Below are positions 4,400 through 19,739 of a DNA stretch of 36,626 nucleotides, in pieces. The stretch covers positions 1 through 36,626 of the forward strand of contig LUQU01000049.1 of assembly GCA_001628005.1 (NCBI GenBank). The letters are read 5' to 3'. The DNA comes from SAR86 cluster bacterium REDSEA-S09_B4 (lineage in GTDB: Bacteria; Pseudomonadota; Gammaproteobacteria; Magnimaribacterales; Magnimaribacteraceae). The first letter of the stretch is position 1. Each line of letters starts with the position of its first letter. Position numbers and translations under genes: made by a program. The notes beneath the pieces were generated by a model. It did not search any database and had not been told where the DNA came from. It saw only the letters and a list, made by a program, of their open reading frames with translations.

Positions 4400-4882
4400 A
4401 TGACTATACAAGTAGGGGATAAGCTGCCTCAAATTACAGTGAGTACCATGACCGATGAGGGGCCTAAACCAGTATCAATGGAAGAACTTTGTGCTGGGAA
4501 AAAAGTAGTTCTATTTGCAGTTCCAGGAGCATTTACGCCGACCTGCAGTGTTCAACATCTACCTGGTTTCGTTACTAATGTGGGTAGTCTAAAAGATAAA
4601 GGGGCTGATGTTGTAGCCTGTATTTCTGTAAATGACCCTTTTGTAATGGCAGCTTGGGGTAAGGATAGGAATGTCGGTGAAGATGTTCTGATGCTTTCTG
4701 ATGGTAATGCTGAGTTCACTTCCGCAATAGGTTTAGAGATGGATGGTTCTGGTTTTGGGCTGGGAACCAGATCTCAACGCTATGCGATGATTATTGACGA
4801 TGGTGTGGTTTCTACCTTAAATGTAGAAAACGGTCCTGCCCTTGAAGTAAGTTCCGCAGAAGCAATTCTTGAAGTTTTATAA
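4400..4882 (+). CDS. Peroxiredoxin, Prx5 (AhpC/TSA, redoxin) type
   Basis: A 160-aa cytosolic thiol peroxidase that reduces hydrogen peroxide and organic or lipid hydroperoxides. The peroxidatic Cys49 sits in the Prx5 signature VPGAFTPTC. The following HLPGFV block and the later LMLSDGNAEFTSAIGL and RSQRYAMIIDDG blocks match the Prx5 subfamily. Cys31 and Cys74 are the other cysteines; which one, if any, resolves the sulfenate is not clear. There is no fused glutaredoxin domain. The ATG has a good ribosome site (GGAG at 4391-4394). It lies 18 nt after thiC and 6 nt before the P450, so it may protect the cell from peroxide leaked by the monooxygenase; that link is inference from position. Confidence 0.93.
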   Translation: MTIQVGDKLPQITVSTMTDEGPKPVSMEELCAGKKVVLFAVPGAFTPTCSVQHLPGFVTNVGSLKDKGADVVACISVNDPFVMAAWGKDRNVGEDVLMLSDGNAEFTSAIGLEMDGSGFGLGTRSQRYAMIIDDGVVSTLNVENGPALEVSSAEAILEVL

Positions 4883-4888: not shown

Positions 4889-6127
4889 ATGACAAAGCCT
4901 GTTTACGACATAGGTCAGATATGTGAGCTAGATCGATGGGAAACTTTTCTAAATGGACAACCCCATGATATTTTCACAAGATTAAGAAAAGAAGCACCAA
5001 TTTATTGGCATGAAGAACAGCTTCCTTTTGAACATGGCTTCTGGGCTCTAACTAAGCATGAAGACATAGTAAGGGTTTCAAAAGATCCACAGACTTTTTC
5101 TTCATCTCAGCCGGGTATTTTAATGACTTACGGAGATCCTGAAGTTGCTGATCCCGCAGCCACTGCAGCATTAGTTAGCAATATGATTGCCATGGATCCA
5201 CCACAACACACTGTTTATAGAAAGATGGTTTCACCTAAATTTAGTCCTAGGTCTTTAAAGGATATGGAAGATGGATTAAGAAATAAGGTTAAAGAATTGC
5301 TTGATGAAGCATCCAAACAAAAGGAGTTTAACTTTGTAACTGAAATATCAGAAAAAATTCCTTTATGGGTTTTGTGTGAAATGATGGGAATAGAGGAATC
5401 GCAAAGACAAAGAGTAAGAGAAATAGTAAATAAACTGACAGACGCCTCTTCAAATCAAAATCCAGATAATGCCATAGAAATATGGGTGAATTACATGGAG
5501 CTTTTCAAAATGGGTAGGGATATGATCGAGGAAAGGCGCAAGAATCCAACAGACGACTTAATGAGTCTTGTTGCTAATACTGAGGTTGAGGGAGAGGGAT
5601 TACCGCAAGAACTACTAGATGGCTTTATGTTGCTTATGGTAATTGCTGGAAATGAAACCACTCGTAACACTATAACAGGTGGCTTAATAGCTCTGAGTCA
5701 GAACCCTGAGGAGAGACAAAAATTAATAAATGATCCAAGTTTAATATCTAATGCTGCTGATGAAATGCTTCGCTGGGTGAGTTCAGTTATCTATATGAGA
5801 AGAACTGCTGCTTGTGATACTGAAATAAGAGGTCAATCAATAAAAAAAGGAGATAAACTTATTATGTGGTACGGAGCAGCCAATAGAGATGAAGAAGTTT
5901 TTAAAGATGCTCATCTCTTTAAGGTAGACAGAGAGGATGCGGCGAAACATATAGCCTTTGGTGCAGGTCAACATCTCTGTCTAGGGCACCGGCTTGGAAA
6001 GCTACAAATAAAGATTCTCTATGAAGAGTTGTTAGCACGTTTCCCCAATATAGAAGTTATTTCAGAACCAACGAGAATCCCATCAAATTTCCTCGATGGT
6101 ATTTCTCATTTAAAAGTCAGAATTTAA
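4889..6127 (+). CDS. Cytochrome P450 monooxygenase (soluble bacterial class)
   Basis: A 412-aa soluble P450 that would insert one oxygen atom from O2 into an unactivated C-H bond, using electrons from a ferredoxin partner. The heme-thiolate signature FGAGQHLCLG is intact with ligand Cys364. The I-helix oxygen-binding motif is A253-G-N-E256-T257-T258, and the K-helix ExxR is in DEMLRW. The overall form (no membrane anchor, about 410 residues) resembles bacterial class I P450s acting on terpenes, sterol side chains or fatty acids; the substrate cannot be read from sequence. No ferredoxin or ferredoxin reductase gene is in the window. It is followed by a CrtC/AttH-like protein (10-nt gap) and a kinase, suggesting one catabolic unit. 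Confidence 0.95.
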   Translation: MTKPVYDIGQICELDRWETFLNGQPHDIFTRLRKEAPIYWHEEQLPFEHGFWALTKHEDIVRVSKDPQTFSSSQPGILMTYGDPEVADPAATAALVSNMIAMDPPQHTVYRKMVSPKFSPRSLKDMEDGLRNKVKELLDEASKQKEFNFVTEISEKIPLWVLCEMMGIEESQRQRVREIVNKLTDASSNQNPDNAIEIWVNYMELFKMGRDMIEERRKNPTDDLMSLVANTEVEGEGLPQELLDGFMLLMVIAGNETTRNTITGGLIALSQNPEERQKLINDPSLISNAADEMLRWVSSVIYMRRTAACDTEIRGQSIKKGDKLIMWYGAANRDEEVFKDAHLFKVDREDAAKHIAFGAGQHLCLGHRLGKLQIKILYEELLARFPNIEVISEPTRIPSNFLDGISHLKVRI

Positions 6128-6137
6128 GCCAAGGTTA

Positions 6138-7229
6138 ATGTTAACCAAAGCAGACGATTATCCTATTCATCAACTCCCAATACCTATTTCAGAAGTTGGT
6201 AGTGAAAGAAATTTCTACGATAGGTACTTTTTCAATGGGTATAACCAAGAAGGCGATATCTTTTTCGCTGTCGCACTATGTCTTTACCCCAATCTAAATA
6301 TTATGGATGGGTCTTTTGTTTTCATTTATGAAGGCATTCAACACAATTTCAGATACTCAAGAATCCTTGATCAAGAGAGGCTCAATACCAAGGTAGGTGC
6401 TTTAGAGGTTCAAGTCATAGAACCTTTAAAAAAACTTAAGGTTTCTGTTGAAGATAAAGAGAAAAACTTTTTTGCAGATTTAACCTTTAATTCTAGGTTT
6501 GAAGCTATGCAGGAGCCTAGGATGACAATGAAATCCGGTCCAAGAATAACTATGGATAGCACTAGGCTAACGCAACATGGAAGATGGAAAGGAAAAATTC
6601 AATTCCAAGAGGAAAAAATAATAATTGAACCAGAAACCTACATGGGTTCAAGGGATAGGTCTTGGGGAGTAAGGCCTGTAGGATTGCCAGATAGCCAGCC
6701 TTCGGCTCCAGCACAAATGCCACAATTCTATTGGCTGTGGTGTCCTGCAAACTTCAAAAAATTCGCTAGCCATACTTTCTTTGTAGATGATGAAAAAGGA
6801 AACCCAATTAACAGCCATGCCGTTATTCAAAAAAACCAAACAGATGTCCTGGTTAATCTTTCAAAGGAAGTTACTTATAAATCAGGAACTAGAAGGGTTT
6901 CAAAAGCAACCTTTGTAGCAGAAAATTCTGAGGGAACTCAAGTCAAGACAATTATAGAGCCAAAATACAACATGTTTATGTGTGGTTTAGGTTACATGCA
7001 TCCTGAATGGGGTCATGGTCATTTCAAAGGAGAAAATGAAAGTCATTATGACTTTTATGATTTAAAAAGTGATCCTCATGATCCACCTTTTTTGCATATT
7101 CAGGCAATTAGCAAAATCCAGATTATTAAAGAAGGGACAACAACAGAAGGGTGTGGAGTTTTAGAGCAGTTGCTTATTGGCAGGCATAAACCAAGTAATT
7201 TTGAAGACATTCTAGATCTAGCTAAATGA
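6138..7229 (+). CDS. Uncharacterised 363-aa protein, possibly lipocalin/CrtC-AttH-like fold
   Basis: I do not recognise a defined function. The protein has no signal peptide or membrane segment. It is rich in alternating beta-like stretches with aromatic and polar residues (RYFFNGYNQEGDIFFAVAL near the N-terminus, GSRDRSWGVRPVG in the middle, HPEWGHGHFKGENE towards the C-terminus). The pattern 'D-R-SWG-R' in the middle recalls the two-domain beta-barrel proteins related to hydroxyneurosporene synthase CrtC and AttH, and the DUF7064/DUF7065 families often found beside P450 and lipid-degradation genes. That assignment is from memory and moderate at best. Its last bases overlap the next gene's ATG by 4 nt (ATGA), which indicates translational coupling with the kinase. 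It may bind or isomerise a hydrophobic substrate; this is inference. Confidence 0.75.
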   Translation: MLTKADDYPIHQLPIPISEVGSERNFYDRYFFNGYNQEGDIFFAVALCLYPNLNIMDGSFVFIYEGIQHNFRYSRILDQERLNTKVGALEVQVIEPLKKLKVSVEDKEKNFFADLTFNSRFEAMQEPRMTMKSGPRITMDSTRLTQHGRWKGKIQFQEEKIIIEPETYMGSRDRSWGVRPVGLPDSQPSAPAQMPQFYWLWCPANFKKFASHTFFVDDEKGNPINSHAVIQKNQTDVLVNLSKEVTYKSGTRRVSKATFVAENSEGTQVKTIIEPKYNMFMCGLGYMHPEWGHGHFKGENESHYDFYDLKSDPHDPPFLHIQAISKIQIIKEGTTTEGCGVLEQLLIGRHKPSNFEDILDLAK

Positions 7230-8251
7230 TTCATGGAACAAAACAAGATAAAATTTTAGGACAAGAATTTTCAGTTTTTTTATCCAAGAAACTTAAAAAA
7301 AAATTTTCATTCTTAACTATTCAAAGAATTTTTGGTGGGGCTTCTAGAGAGACTTATCGTGTTGCATTAAAAGATGAAGATCAAAGCACCGCTAACTTCA
7401 TTTATCGTAGATCTCAGAATAGCTCTCTTATAGAAACTGACCAAAAAACAGAATATTTTGCTTATTCTGATTTTCAGGAAACAGAAGTTCCTGTCCCAAG
7501 ACTTGTAGTCCTTGAAGAGTCTTCAGATGTATTAGGAGCACCTTTTATGGTGATGGAAGAGTTACCAGGGAAGGTAGCTAGCCCTTTTGATAAAGAGGCT
7601 TATATACCCCATGAGGATGAAATAGGCAGACAGTTCTGGAAGATTCTTGGAAAAATAGCTTCTCATGATTTAACAAACTCTAAATTAAAAGAACTTTCAG
7701 AAGTAAAGACTTTACACGATTGTTGGAAAGAGCAGTTGGAATATTGGGTTGAGGTTATTCGTAAAGATTCTCTTGGTGTGGAGCCTATACTTGAAGCAGC
7801 AATCAGGGAATTACAAAGATCTGAACCCTTACCCGCTACTCGGTTAAGTATTGTTCATGGCGATTACAGGAATGGAAATTTCTTATTTGAAGGAAAACGG
7901 ATTACAGGAATACTTGATTGGGAAATGGCCCACATTGGTGACCCTTTAGAGGATTTGGGATGGGCTCTATCAGAAATTTGGTGTTGGGAAAAGAAAGAAA
8001 CTCCAGCTTATTTAATAAAAAGAGAAGAAGCTTTAGATATTTGGTCCCAGGAAAGCAAAATAGAAATAAATAAAGATTCTCTGTTTTGGTGGGAACTTTT
8101 TGCTTGTGTAAAAGGATTAGCTATTTGGATATCAGCGGGACATGAATTTTCTACTGGAAGTAATACAGACCCAGTTAATCTTTTCTCAGCCTGGGTACCA
8201 GGAGATATACATTTAGAAATTATTTTAGATAAGCTTGAATCCTTATTGTAA
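7226..8251 (+). CDS. APH-family phosphotransferase, ACAD10/11 kinase-domain type
   Basis: A 341-aa protein-kinase-fold small-molecule phosphotransferase. The catalytic loop is H211-G-D213-x4-N218 (HGDYRNGN) and the metal-binding Asp is D231 in ILDWEMAHIGDP, with ATP-loop residues around FGGASRETYR near the N-terminus. The sequence style (GILDWEMAHIGDPLEDLGWA) matches the phosphotransferase family that includes the N-terminal domain of mammalian ACAD10/11 and LvaA of the Pseudomonas levulinate pathway, rather than true aminoglycoside-resistance enzymes. In those systems the kinase phosphorylates a hydroxyacyl-CoA so that phosphate can be eliminated. Here the 4-nt overlap with the preceding gene and the nearby P450 suggest it acts on a hydroxylated product. 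The substrate is unproven. Confidence 0.88.
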   Translation: MIHGTKQDKILGQEFSVFLSKKLKKKFSFLTIQRIFGGASRETYRVALKDEDQSTANFIYRRSQNSSLIETDQKTEYFAYSDFQETEVPVPRLVVLEESSDVLGAPFMVMEELPGKVASPFDKEAYIPHEDEIGRQFWKILGKIASHDLTNSKLKELSEVKTLHDCWKEQLEYWVEVIRKDSLGVEPILEAAIRELQRSEPLPATRLSIVHGDYRNGNFLFEGKRITGILDWEMAHIGDPLEDLGWALSEIWCWEKKETPAYLIKREEALDIWSQESKIEINKDSLFWWELFACVKGLAIWISAGHEFSTGSNTDPVNLFSAWVPGDIHLEIILDKLESLL

Positions 8252-8255
8252 AAAT

Positions 8256-8705
8256 ATGAAACCTGAGATAAATAAAACATTACAAACTTTAGCTCAAGAA
8301 TTAATTCAAAGATTTTCTCCTCTATTAGAAGATGAATATGAACAATCAAGATTAAATTCTTGGGGTACTTTACTTTTTTTGGCTTCCATGGATTTAGATG
8401 AAGCAGTAAAAAATCTTATTGAAGAAAATAATATGATTAAGGATTTTCTAGAAAAGTACGTTAAAAATACAAAAGACAAAAAACTTATTCAAGAAGCAAA
8501 CGTTCTTATTGGACAAAAAGATTTTGACTACAACATGTCTAGTCTTGATGAGTTAAATCAAAGGTATAGAGGTTTACTGGTCAGAGCTCAAACTCATTTT
8601 GAAAAAGAACAAAATCTAGTAGCTTTAAAAGATTCTTGGAAGATCTTACGAATAATGCATGGCCATAGAAAAGTAAGCCATTTATTAACTTTGCTAAGGG
8701 GGTAG
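8256..8705 (+). CDS. Hypothetical 149-aa mostly helical protein
   Basis: No family is recognised. The ATG at 8256 is preferred over an in-frame TTG at 8235, which would overlap the kinase gene; the ATG leaves a 4-nt gap. The product is soluble, rich in charged residues and Leu, and looks almost entirely alpha-helical, with no signal peptide, cysteine motif or membrane span. A run of charged helix precedes a C-terminal block NLVALKDSWKILRIMHGHRKVSHLLTLL cut here only for description of its Trp and His residues. Its position directly after the APH-type kinase makes it the last gene of the thiC-P450 run and a possible accessory subunit of that kinase. That role is inferred from position alone. 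Confidence 0.75.
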   Translation: MKPEINKTLQTLAQELIQRFSPLLEDEYEQSRLNSWGTLLFLASMDLDEAVKNLIEENNMIKDFLEKYVKNTKDKKLIQEANVLIGQKDFDYNMSSLDELNQRYRGLLVRAQTHFEKEQNLVALKDSWKILRIMHGHRKVSHLLTLLRG

Positions 8706-9052: not shown

Positions 9053-10108
9053 TTAATTTATAAGTAAATCAGCAATGGCAATACCGTTCTCTCCTCGAAC
9101 TGAATAAAGAAGATAAAGCTTTCCATTTTCTTCAAAAATAGCGGGATCACGTACTTGATTAACAGGAATATTAATTGCACTCCTAGAAGAGGGCTGCAAG
9201 GGCAAGTTACCTCCTTCCCATTCCTTCTCAGGCCTTAAAACTTCTACAGGTTCAGTTGCGTTCCACTCTTCTGGGTTTTTTTTAAGATTTATGGTTGAAA
9301 GCAAGATGCTCTCAGGATTATCACCCACATTGCTATAAAAAATTAACAGCGTATCAAGGTGGACTAGAAGAGCGGCATGTCTCATCTTGTCATCAAACAG
9401 TCGGTGAATAATTTTAAATTCTTCAATACCTCCCTCCCTTTCATAAAAAATGCCTGGCATGGACATTGCGTAGTCTTTTCCCTTGTATGAAAAGGCTCTG
9501 AAATAAGGCCAACCAACAATCTTATCTCTTGAAGAAAAAAGTATACCGTCTGTTGAAGTAGCTACTCTCGTTTGTTGCCGTCCAAATTTTTCCAACCCAT
9601 GGTAATACATAATAATTTCTTGCCTGGCTTCATCGACATGAACGTCTGGTGAAGCAATATGGGGTATCGTCATGTCATCAATTCTTGTTGGTATAGCATG
9701 TGCTTGATCAGGATGAGGCTCGTAGCCACTAACGGTGAATTTGGAAACATCAAAATTTTCAGGTTCTTCAGGTATTGTTGTAAGCAATTTGGATTGCTCA
9801 AGCTTCAAAGATCCTCCTGTATGAATCTTCCATGGACCCTCAAGATGATCTGAATAGGCTAATCTAATATGGTCGCCTTTATGATCAGCAAAATAGAGAT
9901 AATAATTACCTAAAGGGTTATCTAACCAGTCGGGCACTTTTATTAATGAAGGACCTTGTACATTATTACCAACTTCGTTGGTTATTCCTGGTGGGATTAT
10001 TAACCCATTTTCCCATTTGACTACCTTTACTTCCAACTCTTTCCCTTCTTTAGCAAATCCTGTGATAAGTAAAAATAAACAATAAGTAAAAAATAATTTC
10101 TTCGACAT
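9053..10108 (-). CDS. Secreted five-bladed beta-propeller glycosidase-like protein (GH43/GH32-like)
   Basis: A 351-aa exported protein with a signal peptide (MSKKLFFTYCLFLLITGF). It has repeated propeller-blade signatures: QGPSLIKVPDW followed by YYLYFADHKGD and YSDHLEGPWKIH (residues 51-96), IASPDVHVDEARQEIIMYYHG in the middle, and VRDPAIFEENGKLYLLYSV near the end. This 'P-[SD]-..-Y-LYY-....-S-GPW' style is that of family 43/32/62-type five-bladed propellers, which act on arabinan, xylan, fructan or other glycans. The exact family and catalytic acids cannot be fixed by eye. The ATG has an AGGG ribosome site close by. It stands alone, divergent from parE, with no transporter or other glycan enzyme near, so the substrate is open. 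Confidence 0.7.
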   Translation of the reverse strand: MSKKLFFTYCLFLLITGFAKEGKELEVKVVKWENGLIIPPGITNEVGNNVQGPSLIKVPDWLDNPLGNYYLYFADHKGDHIRLAYSDHLEGPWKIHTGGSLKLEQSKLLTTIPEEPENFDVSKFTVSGYEPHPDQAHAIPTRIDDMTIPHIASPDVHVDEARQEIIMYYHGLEKFGRQQTRVATSTDGILFSSRDKIVGWPYFRAFSYKGKDYAMSMPGIFYEREGGIEEFKIIHRLFDDKMRHAALLVHLDTLLIFYSNVGDNPESILLSTINLKKNPEEWNATEPVEVLRPEKEWEGGNLPLQPSSRSAINIPVNQVRDPAIFEENGKLYLLYSVRGENGIAIADLLIN

Positions 10109-18575: not shown

Positions 18576-19739
18576 TTATTTTCTCTGGTTAAATCTTCTT
18601 CCAACAAGGGAAGCTGCAATATTTATTTTTTGAATGTCTATTGTTCCTCCAGCTATACCCCATCCCCAGGCGTCTCTGAATCTTCTTTCCATTTGATATT
18701 CTTTGTTGTATCCATACCCGCCCATGAGCTGTATGGCTGTTCCAGTGACTTCTCTGGCCATCTCATTTGAAAAACATTTACCTACACTTGATTCAAATAT
18801 ACTGGGCAAGCCTTCCGCAGCATTGTGAGCCGCCCGATGAATTAATAGCCGACTTGCTTCTACTTTCATTGCCATTTCAGCTAATTTAAGTTGAACCGCT
18901 TGAAAATCCACTATTGGCTTACCAAATTGTTCTCTTTCTTGCACGTATTCAAGTACCTGTTCTAATGCTCCAGCTGCTTGGCCCAAACTCATGGTTGCAT
19001 TTCCGCATCTTTCTAAATCGAAAGCTTCCATTAGTTTCTTAAAACCACCGTTAGCTTCCACAACAATACTTTCTTTGGGAACTTTTACATTATCAAAAAA
19101 TATATCTGCTGACGGGACTCCATTAAAACCCATAAGTTCTTCCTGCTTTCCAAAAGTTAATCCTTCAGCATCTTTTTCGACATAGACTGCTCCAATTCCT
19201 TTTGCCCCGGGTTCATCAGACATTCTGCAATAAACTACGTAGCCTTGTGCATGCCCCGCACCTGAACACCATCTTTTCATGCCGTTTAATACCAGATTTC
19301 CATCTTTCTCTTCAGCTTTTGTGGTTAAGTCCGTTAAGGCTGATCCTGCATGCGGTTCAGACATACTGACCGCAACAAATAAATTACCTTTACAAACTTC
19401 AGGTATGACTTTTTGCTTTAAATCCTCATTGGCAAAATGCTCTATGGCCTTGATTGGACCAACGGCACTTTCGAAGATTGGCCAAGCTACTACTGAAGAA
19501 ACCTTGGCAAATTCTTCTAAAACCAACAAAGCGTCTATATTCGAAAGGCCTAAACCACCGTATTTTTTATTTATATTGATTCCTAAAAATCCCATCTCGG
19601 CATATCGACCAAACCATTCGTCAGATAAAAACTCCTTCTTCTCTTCTAATTCTTTGGCAACTGAAGTCATCTCCTTTTGCGCAAACTCTCTTGCTACAGA
19701 CTGTAATTCTTTTTGTTCTGGTGTTAATGAAAAGTCCAT
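18576..19739 (-). CDS. Acyl-CoA dehydrogenase
   Basis: A 387-aa FAD flavoenzyme that would oxidise an acyl-CoA to the trans-2-enoyl-CoA. The three domains are readable: helical N-domain (FSLTPEQKELQSVAREFA), FAD-binding middle domain (AVSMSEPHAGSALTDLTTKA, then MKRWCSGAGHAQGYVV) and C-terminal helices (EREQFGKPIVDFQAVQ, ELMGGYGYNKEY-like end). The catalytic Glu of the MCAD/SCAD position is replaced: the usual Y-E-G-T is A-G364-G-T. Instead Glu243 in FDLERCGNA occupies the helix-G site used by isovaleryl-CoA and long-chain dehydrogenases. A good ribosome site (AAGGAG) precedes the ATG, 11 nt after the CoA-transferase gene on the same strand. Confidence 0.93.
   Translation of the reverse strand: MDFSLTPEQKELQSVAREFAQKEMTSVAKELEEKKEFLSDEWFGRYAEMGFLGININKKYGGLGLSNIDALLVLEEFAKVSSVVAWPIFESAVGPIKAIEHFANEDLKQKVIPEVCKGNLFVAVSMSEPHAGSALTDLTTKAEEKDGNLVLNGMKRWCSGAGHAQGYVVYCRMSDEPGAKGIGAVYVEKDAEGLTFGKQEELMGFNGVPSADIFFDNVKVPKESIVVEANGGFKKLMEAFDLERCGNATMSLGQAAGALEQVLEYVQEREQFGKPIVDFQAVQLKLAEMAMKVEASRLLIHRAAHNAAEGLPSIFESSVGKCFSNEMAREVTGTAIQLMGGYGYNKEYQMERRFRDAWGWGIAGGTIDIQKINIAASLVGRRFNQRK

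What the first reader, a model, noticed from the sequence alone, without database searches (positions are those of the whole stretch)
4889..8705. P450, unknown barrel-like protein, ACAD10-type kinase and unknown partner as one 'oxidise-then-phosphorylate' unit
The P450 gene is followed by a 363-aa unknown protein (10-nt gap), a kinase of the ACAD10/11-LvaA type (4-nt overlap) and a 149-aa unknown (4-nt gap). ACAD10/11 and the levulinate pathway phosphorylate hydroxyacyl-CoA so that phosphate can be eliminated. A P450 upstream would make the hydroxyl group. This suggests a compact route in which an inert hydrocarbon or terpenoid chain is hydroxylated, phosphorylated and deoxygenated. The acyl-CoA dehydrogenase at 18576 could supply the elimination step, but it is about 10 kb away. 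The two unknown genes would be new parts of such a system.
Basis: partly seen in the sequence, partly recalled or inferred. Interest (0 to 1): 0.6.

Follow-up and report, generated by a model that had tools for sequence, protein, structure and literature searches.

The report
P450–phospholyase–kinase alcohol dehydration operon (SAR86)
A marine SAR86 bacterium carries a compact operon that very probably turns an unreactive alcohol on a greasy branched molecule into an alkene by adding a phosphate and then removing it, using a lyase of a family solved only in 2026, and here it is paired with an oxygen-using P450 that may make or further oxidise that alcohol.

Summary
In detail: P450 (4889-6127), 363-aa protein (6138-7229), APH-type kinase (7226-8251) and a 149-aa protein (8256-8705), with the gaps and overlap stated. 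The genome is SAR86. The 363-aa "unknown" is not unknown. It belongs to the Rv3169 family (E 1.8e-103), matches solved 25-phosphosteroid lyase over its full length (Z 36.7), and 21 of 22 comparable family-invariant residues are shared. It is therefore the probable phosphate-eliminating enzyme, and no acyl-CoA dehydrogenase is needed. The lyase sits next to an APH kinase in 21 of 26 loci of a broad alphaproteobacterial-type sample and in most SAR86 clades. At least three separate kinase clades were recruited, which fits a phosphorylate-then-eliminate pair. The 149-aa protein follows one kinase clade and is remotely related to DUF6285, a small protein found directly after other kinases of this type. 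The P450 is a lineage-specific addition: 30 of 31 orthologues, all in one SAR86 family, lie directly before the lyase. The substrate is open: the steroid-ring enzyme KshA is missing here and in 33 of 35 genomes of the family, so a non-steroid isoprenoid or branched lipid is likelier than a sterol. A new, P450-linked variant of a known reaction pair.

The parts
4400..4882 (+). peroxiredoxin (Redoxin/AhpC-TSA), first gene of the tightly spaced run; membership of the functional unit uncertain
   Evidence: Pfam Redoxin E 2.9e-39; 6-nt gap to the P450; same order in all SAR86 family f1 loci read in full
4889..6127 (+). cytochrome P450, 412 aa; 42% identical to a reconstructed CYP125 ancestor, next CYP153/CYP126/CYP124
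   Evidence: orthologues only in SAR86 family f1, 30 of 31 directly before the lyase
5957..5986 (+). P450 heme-ligand motif FGAGQHLCLG
6138..7229 (+). 363-aa phosphate lyase of the Rv3169 / 25-phosphosteroid lyase family
   Evidence: NF053593 346 bits against cut-off 150; PDB 9fzn E 2e-44; full-length fold match Z 36.7, rmsd 3.1 over 335 residues
6645..6683 (+). lyase signature GSRDRSWGVRPVG (aa 170-182), identical in 25-PSL
7226..8251 (+). APH-type small-molecule kinase, 341 aa
   Evidence: Pfam APH E 8.9e-33; one clade with the kinases of other lyase-kinase-149aa triads, support 96/97
7856..7879 (+). kinase catalytic loop HGDYRNGN
7916..7924 (+). kinase metal-binding DWE
8256..8705 (+). 149-aa helical protein; probable divergent relative of DUF6285, proposed kinase partner in the manner of LvaB
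   Evidence: directly after this kinase clade in SAR86 and alphaproteobacteria; profile link to DUF6285; all-helical model pLDDT 80

Best explanation
The operon encodes an ATP-dependent dehydration module. The kinase (helped by the 149-aa partner) phosphorylates a hindered, probably tertiary, alcohol on a hydrophobic isoprenoid or branched-lipid substrate. The 363-aa lyase then eliminates phosphate to give an alkene. The P450 acts in the same route: either before, putting the hydroxyl on the tertiary carbon (net desaturation), or after, hydroxylating the new allylic carbon. It would thereby replace one or both of the water-using molybdenum hydroxylases of the anaerobic Sterolibacterium cascade. 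Shown here: identities, fold, conserved residues, gene linkage, intact motifs, selection. Inferred from characterised relatives: the kinase and lyase reactions. Inferred only from linkage: P450 membership, order of steps, role of the 149-aa protein. Open: the substrate, which is probably not a steroid degraded through the canonical ring pathway.
For: Lyase identity by sequence, full-length fold and 21 of 22 comparable invariant residues. In S. denitrificans 25-hydroxysteroid kinase phosphorylates tertiary alcohols and phosphate is then eliminated to an alkene (PMC8449060). The lyase is next to an APH kinase in 21 of 26 loci of a broad sample and at unrelated genome positions in different SAR86 groups. 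Different kinase clades pair with the same lyase, with at least 4 switches on the lyase tree, as expected if the lyase needs some kinase's product. G000 has only 5 APH matches, so adjacency by chance is unlikely. P450 orthologues are nearly always directly upstream (30 of 31).
Against: Identity to 25-PSL is only about a third (97 of 295 aligned residues), so specificity cannot be transferred. Gene order around the operon is conserved throughout SAR86 f1, so P450 linkage there is weaker evidence than a recurrent one; elsewhere a P450 is near the lyase in only two loci (L081, L100). Some SAR86 genera carry a 37%-identical lyase homologue with no kinase beside it. The paper on 25-PSL itself is not in the library, so the conserved residues are not checked against its mechanism.
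Confidence: 0.72

Rival explanations
1. Steroid version: the operon is an aerobic copy of the sterol side-chain cascade, with the P450 hydroxylating C25 or allylic C26 of a sterol.
For: Lyase relative acts on 25-phosphosteroids; P450 best match is a reconstructed CYP125 ancestor; three SAR86 draft genomes were reported to hold a steroid (testosterone/cholate) pathway (PMC4810484).
Against: KshA_C is absent from G000 and from 33 of 35 genomes of its family, and found mainly in other SAR86 genera where the lyase homologue stands alone. No other ring genes were tested.
Confidence: 0.2
2. The kinase-lyase pair deals with alcohols that are already tertiary when taken up (for example terpenoid alcohols or photo-oxidised isoprenoids), and the P450 acts only later or independently.
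For: The pair exists without an adjacent P450 in most genomes; aerobic bacteria can hydroxylate the terminal carbon directly and would not need the detour (PMC8449060).
Against: 30 of 31 P450 orthologues are directly upstream of the lyase, 10-nt gap in the window.
Confidence: 0.3
3. One reading: the kinase phosphorylates hydroxyacyl-CoA as in LvaA/ACAD10-11 and an acyl-CoA dehydrogenase eliminates phosphate.
For: Kinase is distantly similar to ACAD11 and to DUF6285-linked kinases; the 149-aa protein resembles the small gene after such kinases.
Against: A dedicated lyase homologue lies between P450 and kinase; the nearby dehydrogenase is medium/short-chain type; the genome has another, DUF6285-linked kinase on contig C1 better placed for that role.
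Confidence: 0.08
4. The 363-aa protein has drifted to another reaction of its fold (hydratase or cyclase, as in kievitone hydratase or Fsa2/CghA) and the kinase pairing is coincidental.
For: Same fold as a hydratase and Diels-Alderases, Z 22-24.
Against: Far closer to 25-PSL (Z 36.7), 21 of 22 invariant residues shared, recurrent kinase pairing.
Confidence: 0.06

Closest known systems
25-hydroxysteroid kinase / 25-phosphosteroid lyase of Sterolibacterium denitrificans (PMC8449060; PDB 9fzn, 9g2i, 9g4c)
   Same: APH-type kinase plus lyase of the same family and fold; expected ATP-dependent dehydration of a tertiary alcohol
   Different: Here the two genes overlap in one operon (no lyase candidate lay near the kinase gene in S. 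denitrificans), a P450 stands in for Mo-hydroxylases, a 149-aa partner is added, the kinase is only weakly similar to 9fsg (presumed 25-HSK), and the steroid-ring marker KshA is missing
Rv3168/Rv3169 gene pair of Mycobacterium tuberculosis (3ats is Rv3168 from own knowledge; NF053593 is named after Rv3169)
   Same: APH kinase and lyase-family genes with neighbouring numbers
   Different: Not read here directly; the one actinobacterial locus with an adjacent kinase (L087) has a kinase of another clade and no P450 or 149-aa gene; function of the Rv pair not found in the library
LvaA/LvaB/LvaC levulinate operon and ACAD10/ACAD11 (PMC11342911, PMC6692424)
   Same: APH kinase with a small partner gene; phosphorylation used to make a leaving group
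   Different: Elimination there is by an acyl-CoA dehydrogenase acting on acyl-CoA; here by an unrelated beta-barrel lyase
Kievitone hydratase / AttH / Fsa2-CghA fold
   Same: Same fold; kievitone hydratase (own knowledge) makes a tertiary alcohol on a prenyl chain, the reverse type of change
   Different: No phosphate chemistry; about 12% identity

Membership tests
Rv3169 family / 25-phosphosteroid lyase (NF053593) | profile score above curated cut-off over full length | tested here: met
   346 bits against 150, residues 2-347
Rv3169 family / 25-phosphosteroid lyase (NF053593) | full-length fold of 25-PSL | tested here: met
   Z 36.7, 335 residues, rmsd 3.1; model pLDDT 84
Rv3169 family / 25-phosphosteroid lyase (NF053593) | family-invariant residues shared with 25-PSL | tested here: met
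   21 of 22 comparable positions; which of them are catalytic was not known here
Rv3169 family / 25-phosphosteroid lyase (NF053593) | phosphate elimination from a 25-phosphosteroid | not testable with these tools
   needs an assay
25-hydroxysteroid kinase | same kinase clade as 25-HSK | tested here: inconclusive
LvaA / ACAD10-11 kinase | groups with DUF6285-linked (LvaA-like) kinases | tested here: not met
   two separate groups, both with support 96/97; LvaA itself was not in the tree
LvaA / ACAD10-11 kinase | partnered with ACAD11-type dehydrogenase | tested here: not met
   none in the operon; the 18576 gene is medium/short-chain type
DUF6285 (PF19802) | 149-aa protein scores above Pfam cut-off | tested here: not met
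   no hit; window member 2.3 bits on the session's DUF6285 profile
DUF6285 (PF19802) | remote homology through intermediates | tested here: inconclusive
   alphaproteobacterial members up to 27 bits, shuffled maximum 10.2 in 2250; profile-profile probability 66%, block-shuffled maximum 26%
CYP125 | membership of the CYP125 family | tested here: inconclusive
   42% identity to a reconstructed ancestor but natural CYP125s score lower (about 222-245 bits) than CYP153-type (up to 274) and CYP126 (257); no tree built

The most novel reading that the evidence does not exclude
An oxygen-dependent counterpart of the anaerobic sterol side-chain cascade, in which a P450 makes a tertiary alcohol and a kinase (with an LvaB-like partner) and lyase convert it to an alkene on a non-steroid isoprenoid, in one of the ocean's most abundant bacterial groups; the kinase-lyase pair would be a general, widely distributed route for dehydrating hindered alcohols.
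Probability: 0.4. Interest if true: 0.75.

Novelty: new variant of a known kind. Interest (0 to 1): 0.6.

Why it matters
In the papers held here the kinase-lyase reaction is known from a single denitrifying sterol degrader. If the pair seen here works the same way, dehydration of hindered alcohols through a phosphate ester is a widespread aerobic strategy (98 of 199 sampled SAR86 genomes and 25 of 289 genomes of an alphaproteobacterial-type class carry the lyase family over its cut-off). It would give a testable function to Rv3169-family proteins, to the APH kinases beside them (easily mistaken for aminoglycoside phosphotransferases) and to a 149-aa protein without annotation, and would point to an unrecognised carbon source for SAR86.

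Tried and rejected
Direct Pfam, NCBIfam and PDB searches of the 149-aa protein gave nothing convincing; its weak NCBIfam hit to CiaI (E 5e-6, far below cut-off) was set aside as helical resemblance. Foldseek with its model found no match below E 0.85. No solved relative of a DUF6285 protein was found in the PDB copy. The paper describing 25-PSL was sought four ways and is not held; Rand et al. 2017 is not held, so LvaB facts come from PMC6692424. Considered and rejected: kinase as an antibiotic-resistance APH (all NCBIfam resistance models far below cut-off); acyl-CoA dehydrogenase at 18576 as the eliminating enzyme. A first column-shuffle control failed to parse and was redone.

Full report
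Observation. Sequence motifs of the P450 and kinase are intact. All four genes evolve under purifying selection; the 149-aa gene is the fastest, dN/dS 0.15-0.19. A peroxiredoxin gene ends 6 nt upstream of the P450, so the run is at least five genes long.

Host. Close relatives by name are SAR86 cluster bacteria; the closest named locus, L056, is 93-99% identical over the operon genes it holds. The genome is 1.67 Mb in 107 contigs, 88% complete. Below, f1-f4 and g-numbers are the unnamed family and genus labels of the search tool within this order.

The 363-aa protein. It scores 346 bits on NCBIfam's Rv3169 family (cut-off 150) and hits the solved 25-phosphosteroid lyase entries at E 2e-44. An AlphaFold model from 25 relatives (pLDDT 84) matches 25-PSL over nearly the whole chain, Z 36.7, with the next group at Z 22-24: AttH, kievitone hydratase and the Fsa2/CghA/Phm7 cyclases. 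Of 26 residues invariant across 38 family members, 22 can be compared with 25-PSL and 21 are the same, including the GSRDRSWGVRPVG stretch. Entries 9fzn, 9g2i and 9g4c were released in January 2026, so the family's function is very recent knowledge.

The known chemistry. In S. denitrificans a tertiary C25 alcohol is phosphorylated by an APH-type kinase, and phosphate is eliminated by a then-unknown lyase to give an alkene (PMC8449060). The authors saw no lyase candidate near the kinase gene. In the window the kinase and lyase genes overlap.

Kinase-lyase linkage. Lyase loci were gathered from SAR86, the phylum, named genomes and the class of genome G485 (unnamed, taken to be Alphaproteobacteria because its loci resemble the named alphaproteobacterial ones). 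In the G485-class sample an APH kinase lies within the 1.5-kb flanks in 21 of 26 lyase loci. All SAR86 f1 loci, nearly all f3 loci and the f2/g15 loci examined have it, in different genomic settings. Exceptions are SAR86 genera g16, g18 and g20, whose 37%-identical homologue stands alone next to a leucyl-tRNA synthetase-like gene, and one g9 genome (neighbours named by eye). The window genome has five APH matches in all, so this is not chance. The kinases belong to several separate clades: the window/alphaproteobacterial clade, a SAR86-f3 clade, and a DWQ clade of sphingomonads and actinobacteria. On the lyase tree the kinase type changes at least four times. Replacement of one kinase clade by another beside the same lyase is what a phosphorylate-then-eliminate pair predicts.

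The 149-aa protein. In SAR86 it occurs only in f1 (32 of 35 genomes). Outside SAR86 it directly follows the kinase in many alphaproteobacterial-type lyase-kinase loci. Its model is all-helical without a match in the PDB. DUF6285 proteins also directly follow kinases of this fold, and in one genome the two are fused in one ORF (L113). Alphaproteobacterial 149-aa relatives score up to 27 bits on a DUF6285 profile, against a maximum of 10 for 2250 shuffled sequences; profile-profile probability is 66%, against at most 26% for block-shuffled controls. The window protein itself scores only 2.3 bits, so homology is likely but unproven and rests on intermediates. In P. putida the 12-kDa LvaB binds the kinase LvaA and both are needed (PMC6692424). 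A role as kinase partner is the best guess; whether LvaB is itself a DUF6285 protein was not tested.

The P450. Its nearest solved relative is a reconstructed CYP125 ancestor (42% identity), then alkane-hydroxylase (CYP153-type) P450s, CYP126 and CYP124, which suggests a hydrocarbon or isoprenoid-chain hydroxylase without fixing the family. Orthologues (71-99% identity) exist only in SAR86 f1; 30 of 31 lie directly upstream of the lyase, and the last is a fragment of 261 residues. The other SAR86 matches listed are 35-43% identical. A P450 next to the lyase elsewhere was seen twice (L081 same strand, L100 opposite strand). So the P450 is a stable but lineage-specific addition.

Substrate. SAR86 draft genomes have been reported to hold a steroid pathway (PMC4810484). 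KshA_C is, however, absent from the window genome and from all but two of 35 f1 genomes, and present mainly in f2 genera whose lyase homologue is solitary. Incomplete genomes are unlikely to explain so even an absence. A sterol broken down by the canonical ring route is therefore unlikely; a non-steroid isoprenoid or branched lipid is preferred by inference.

The acyl-CoA dehydrogenase at 18576 is a medium/short-chain type and not ACAD11-like. The genome has a separate DUF6285-linked kinase on contig C1, a better candidate for acyl-CoA-type chemistry.

Verdict. What is new is the P450-linked arrangement, the kinase swapping, the 149-aa partner and the spread into abundant marine bacteria without KshA.

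Noticed in passing
G000:C75:24618-25358 (L005:1009-2019): A second, distant lyase-fold relative (DUF7064+DUF7065, weak match to the Rv3169 family) recurs in many f1 genomes, here beside a luciferase-like monooxygenase gene; no kinase seen in the fetched flanks.
   Followed up: partly
L051, L052, L053 (SAR86 genera g16, g18, g20): A 37%-identical lyase homologue sits alone next to a leucyl-tRNA synthetase-like gene in SAR86 genera that do carry KshA; its partner kinase was not found nearby.
   Followed up: partly
L113:337-1794: APH kinase and DUF6285 are fused in one ORF, a hint that DUF6285 proteins are physical kinase partners.
   Followed up: no
L055 (G007:C1:523889-524930): The lyase gene is split into two ORFs while the kinase remains, a possible recent loss or a sequencing error.
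   Followed up: no
window 4400-4882: A peroxiredoxin precedes the P450 with a 6-nt gap, in the same order in the f1 genomes read in full; it might protect against peroxide from P450 uncoupling.
   Followed up: no
L002 (G000:C102): Another P450 is followed directly by a 106-aa ferredoxin-like gene (by eye), a possible electron donor for the window's P450, which has none beside it.
   Followed up: no
window 9053-10108: A 351-aa protein with no Pfam match, on the opposite strand, present at the same place in several but not all f1 genomes.
   Followed up: no
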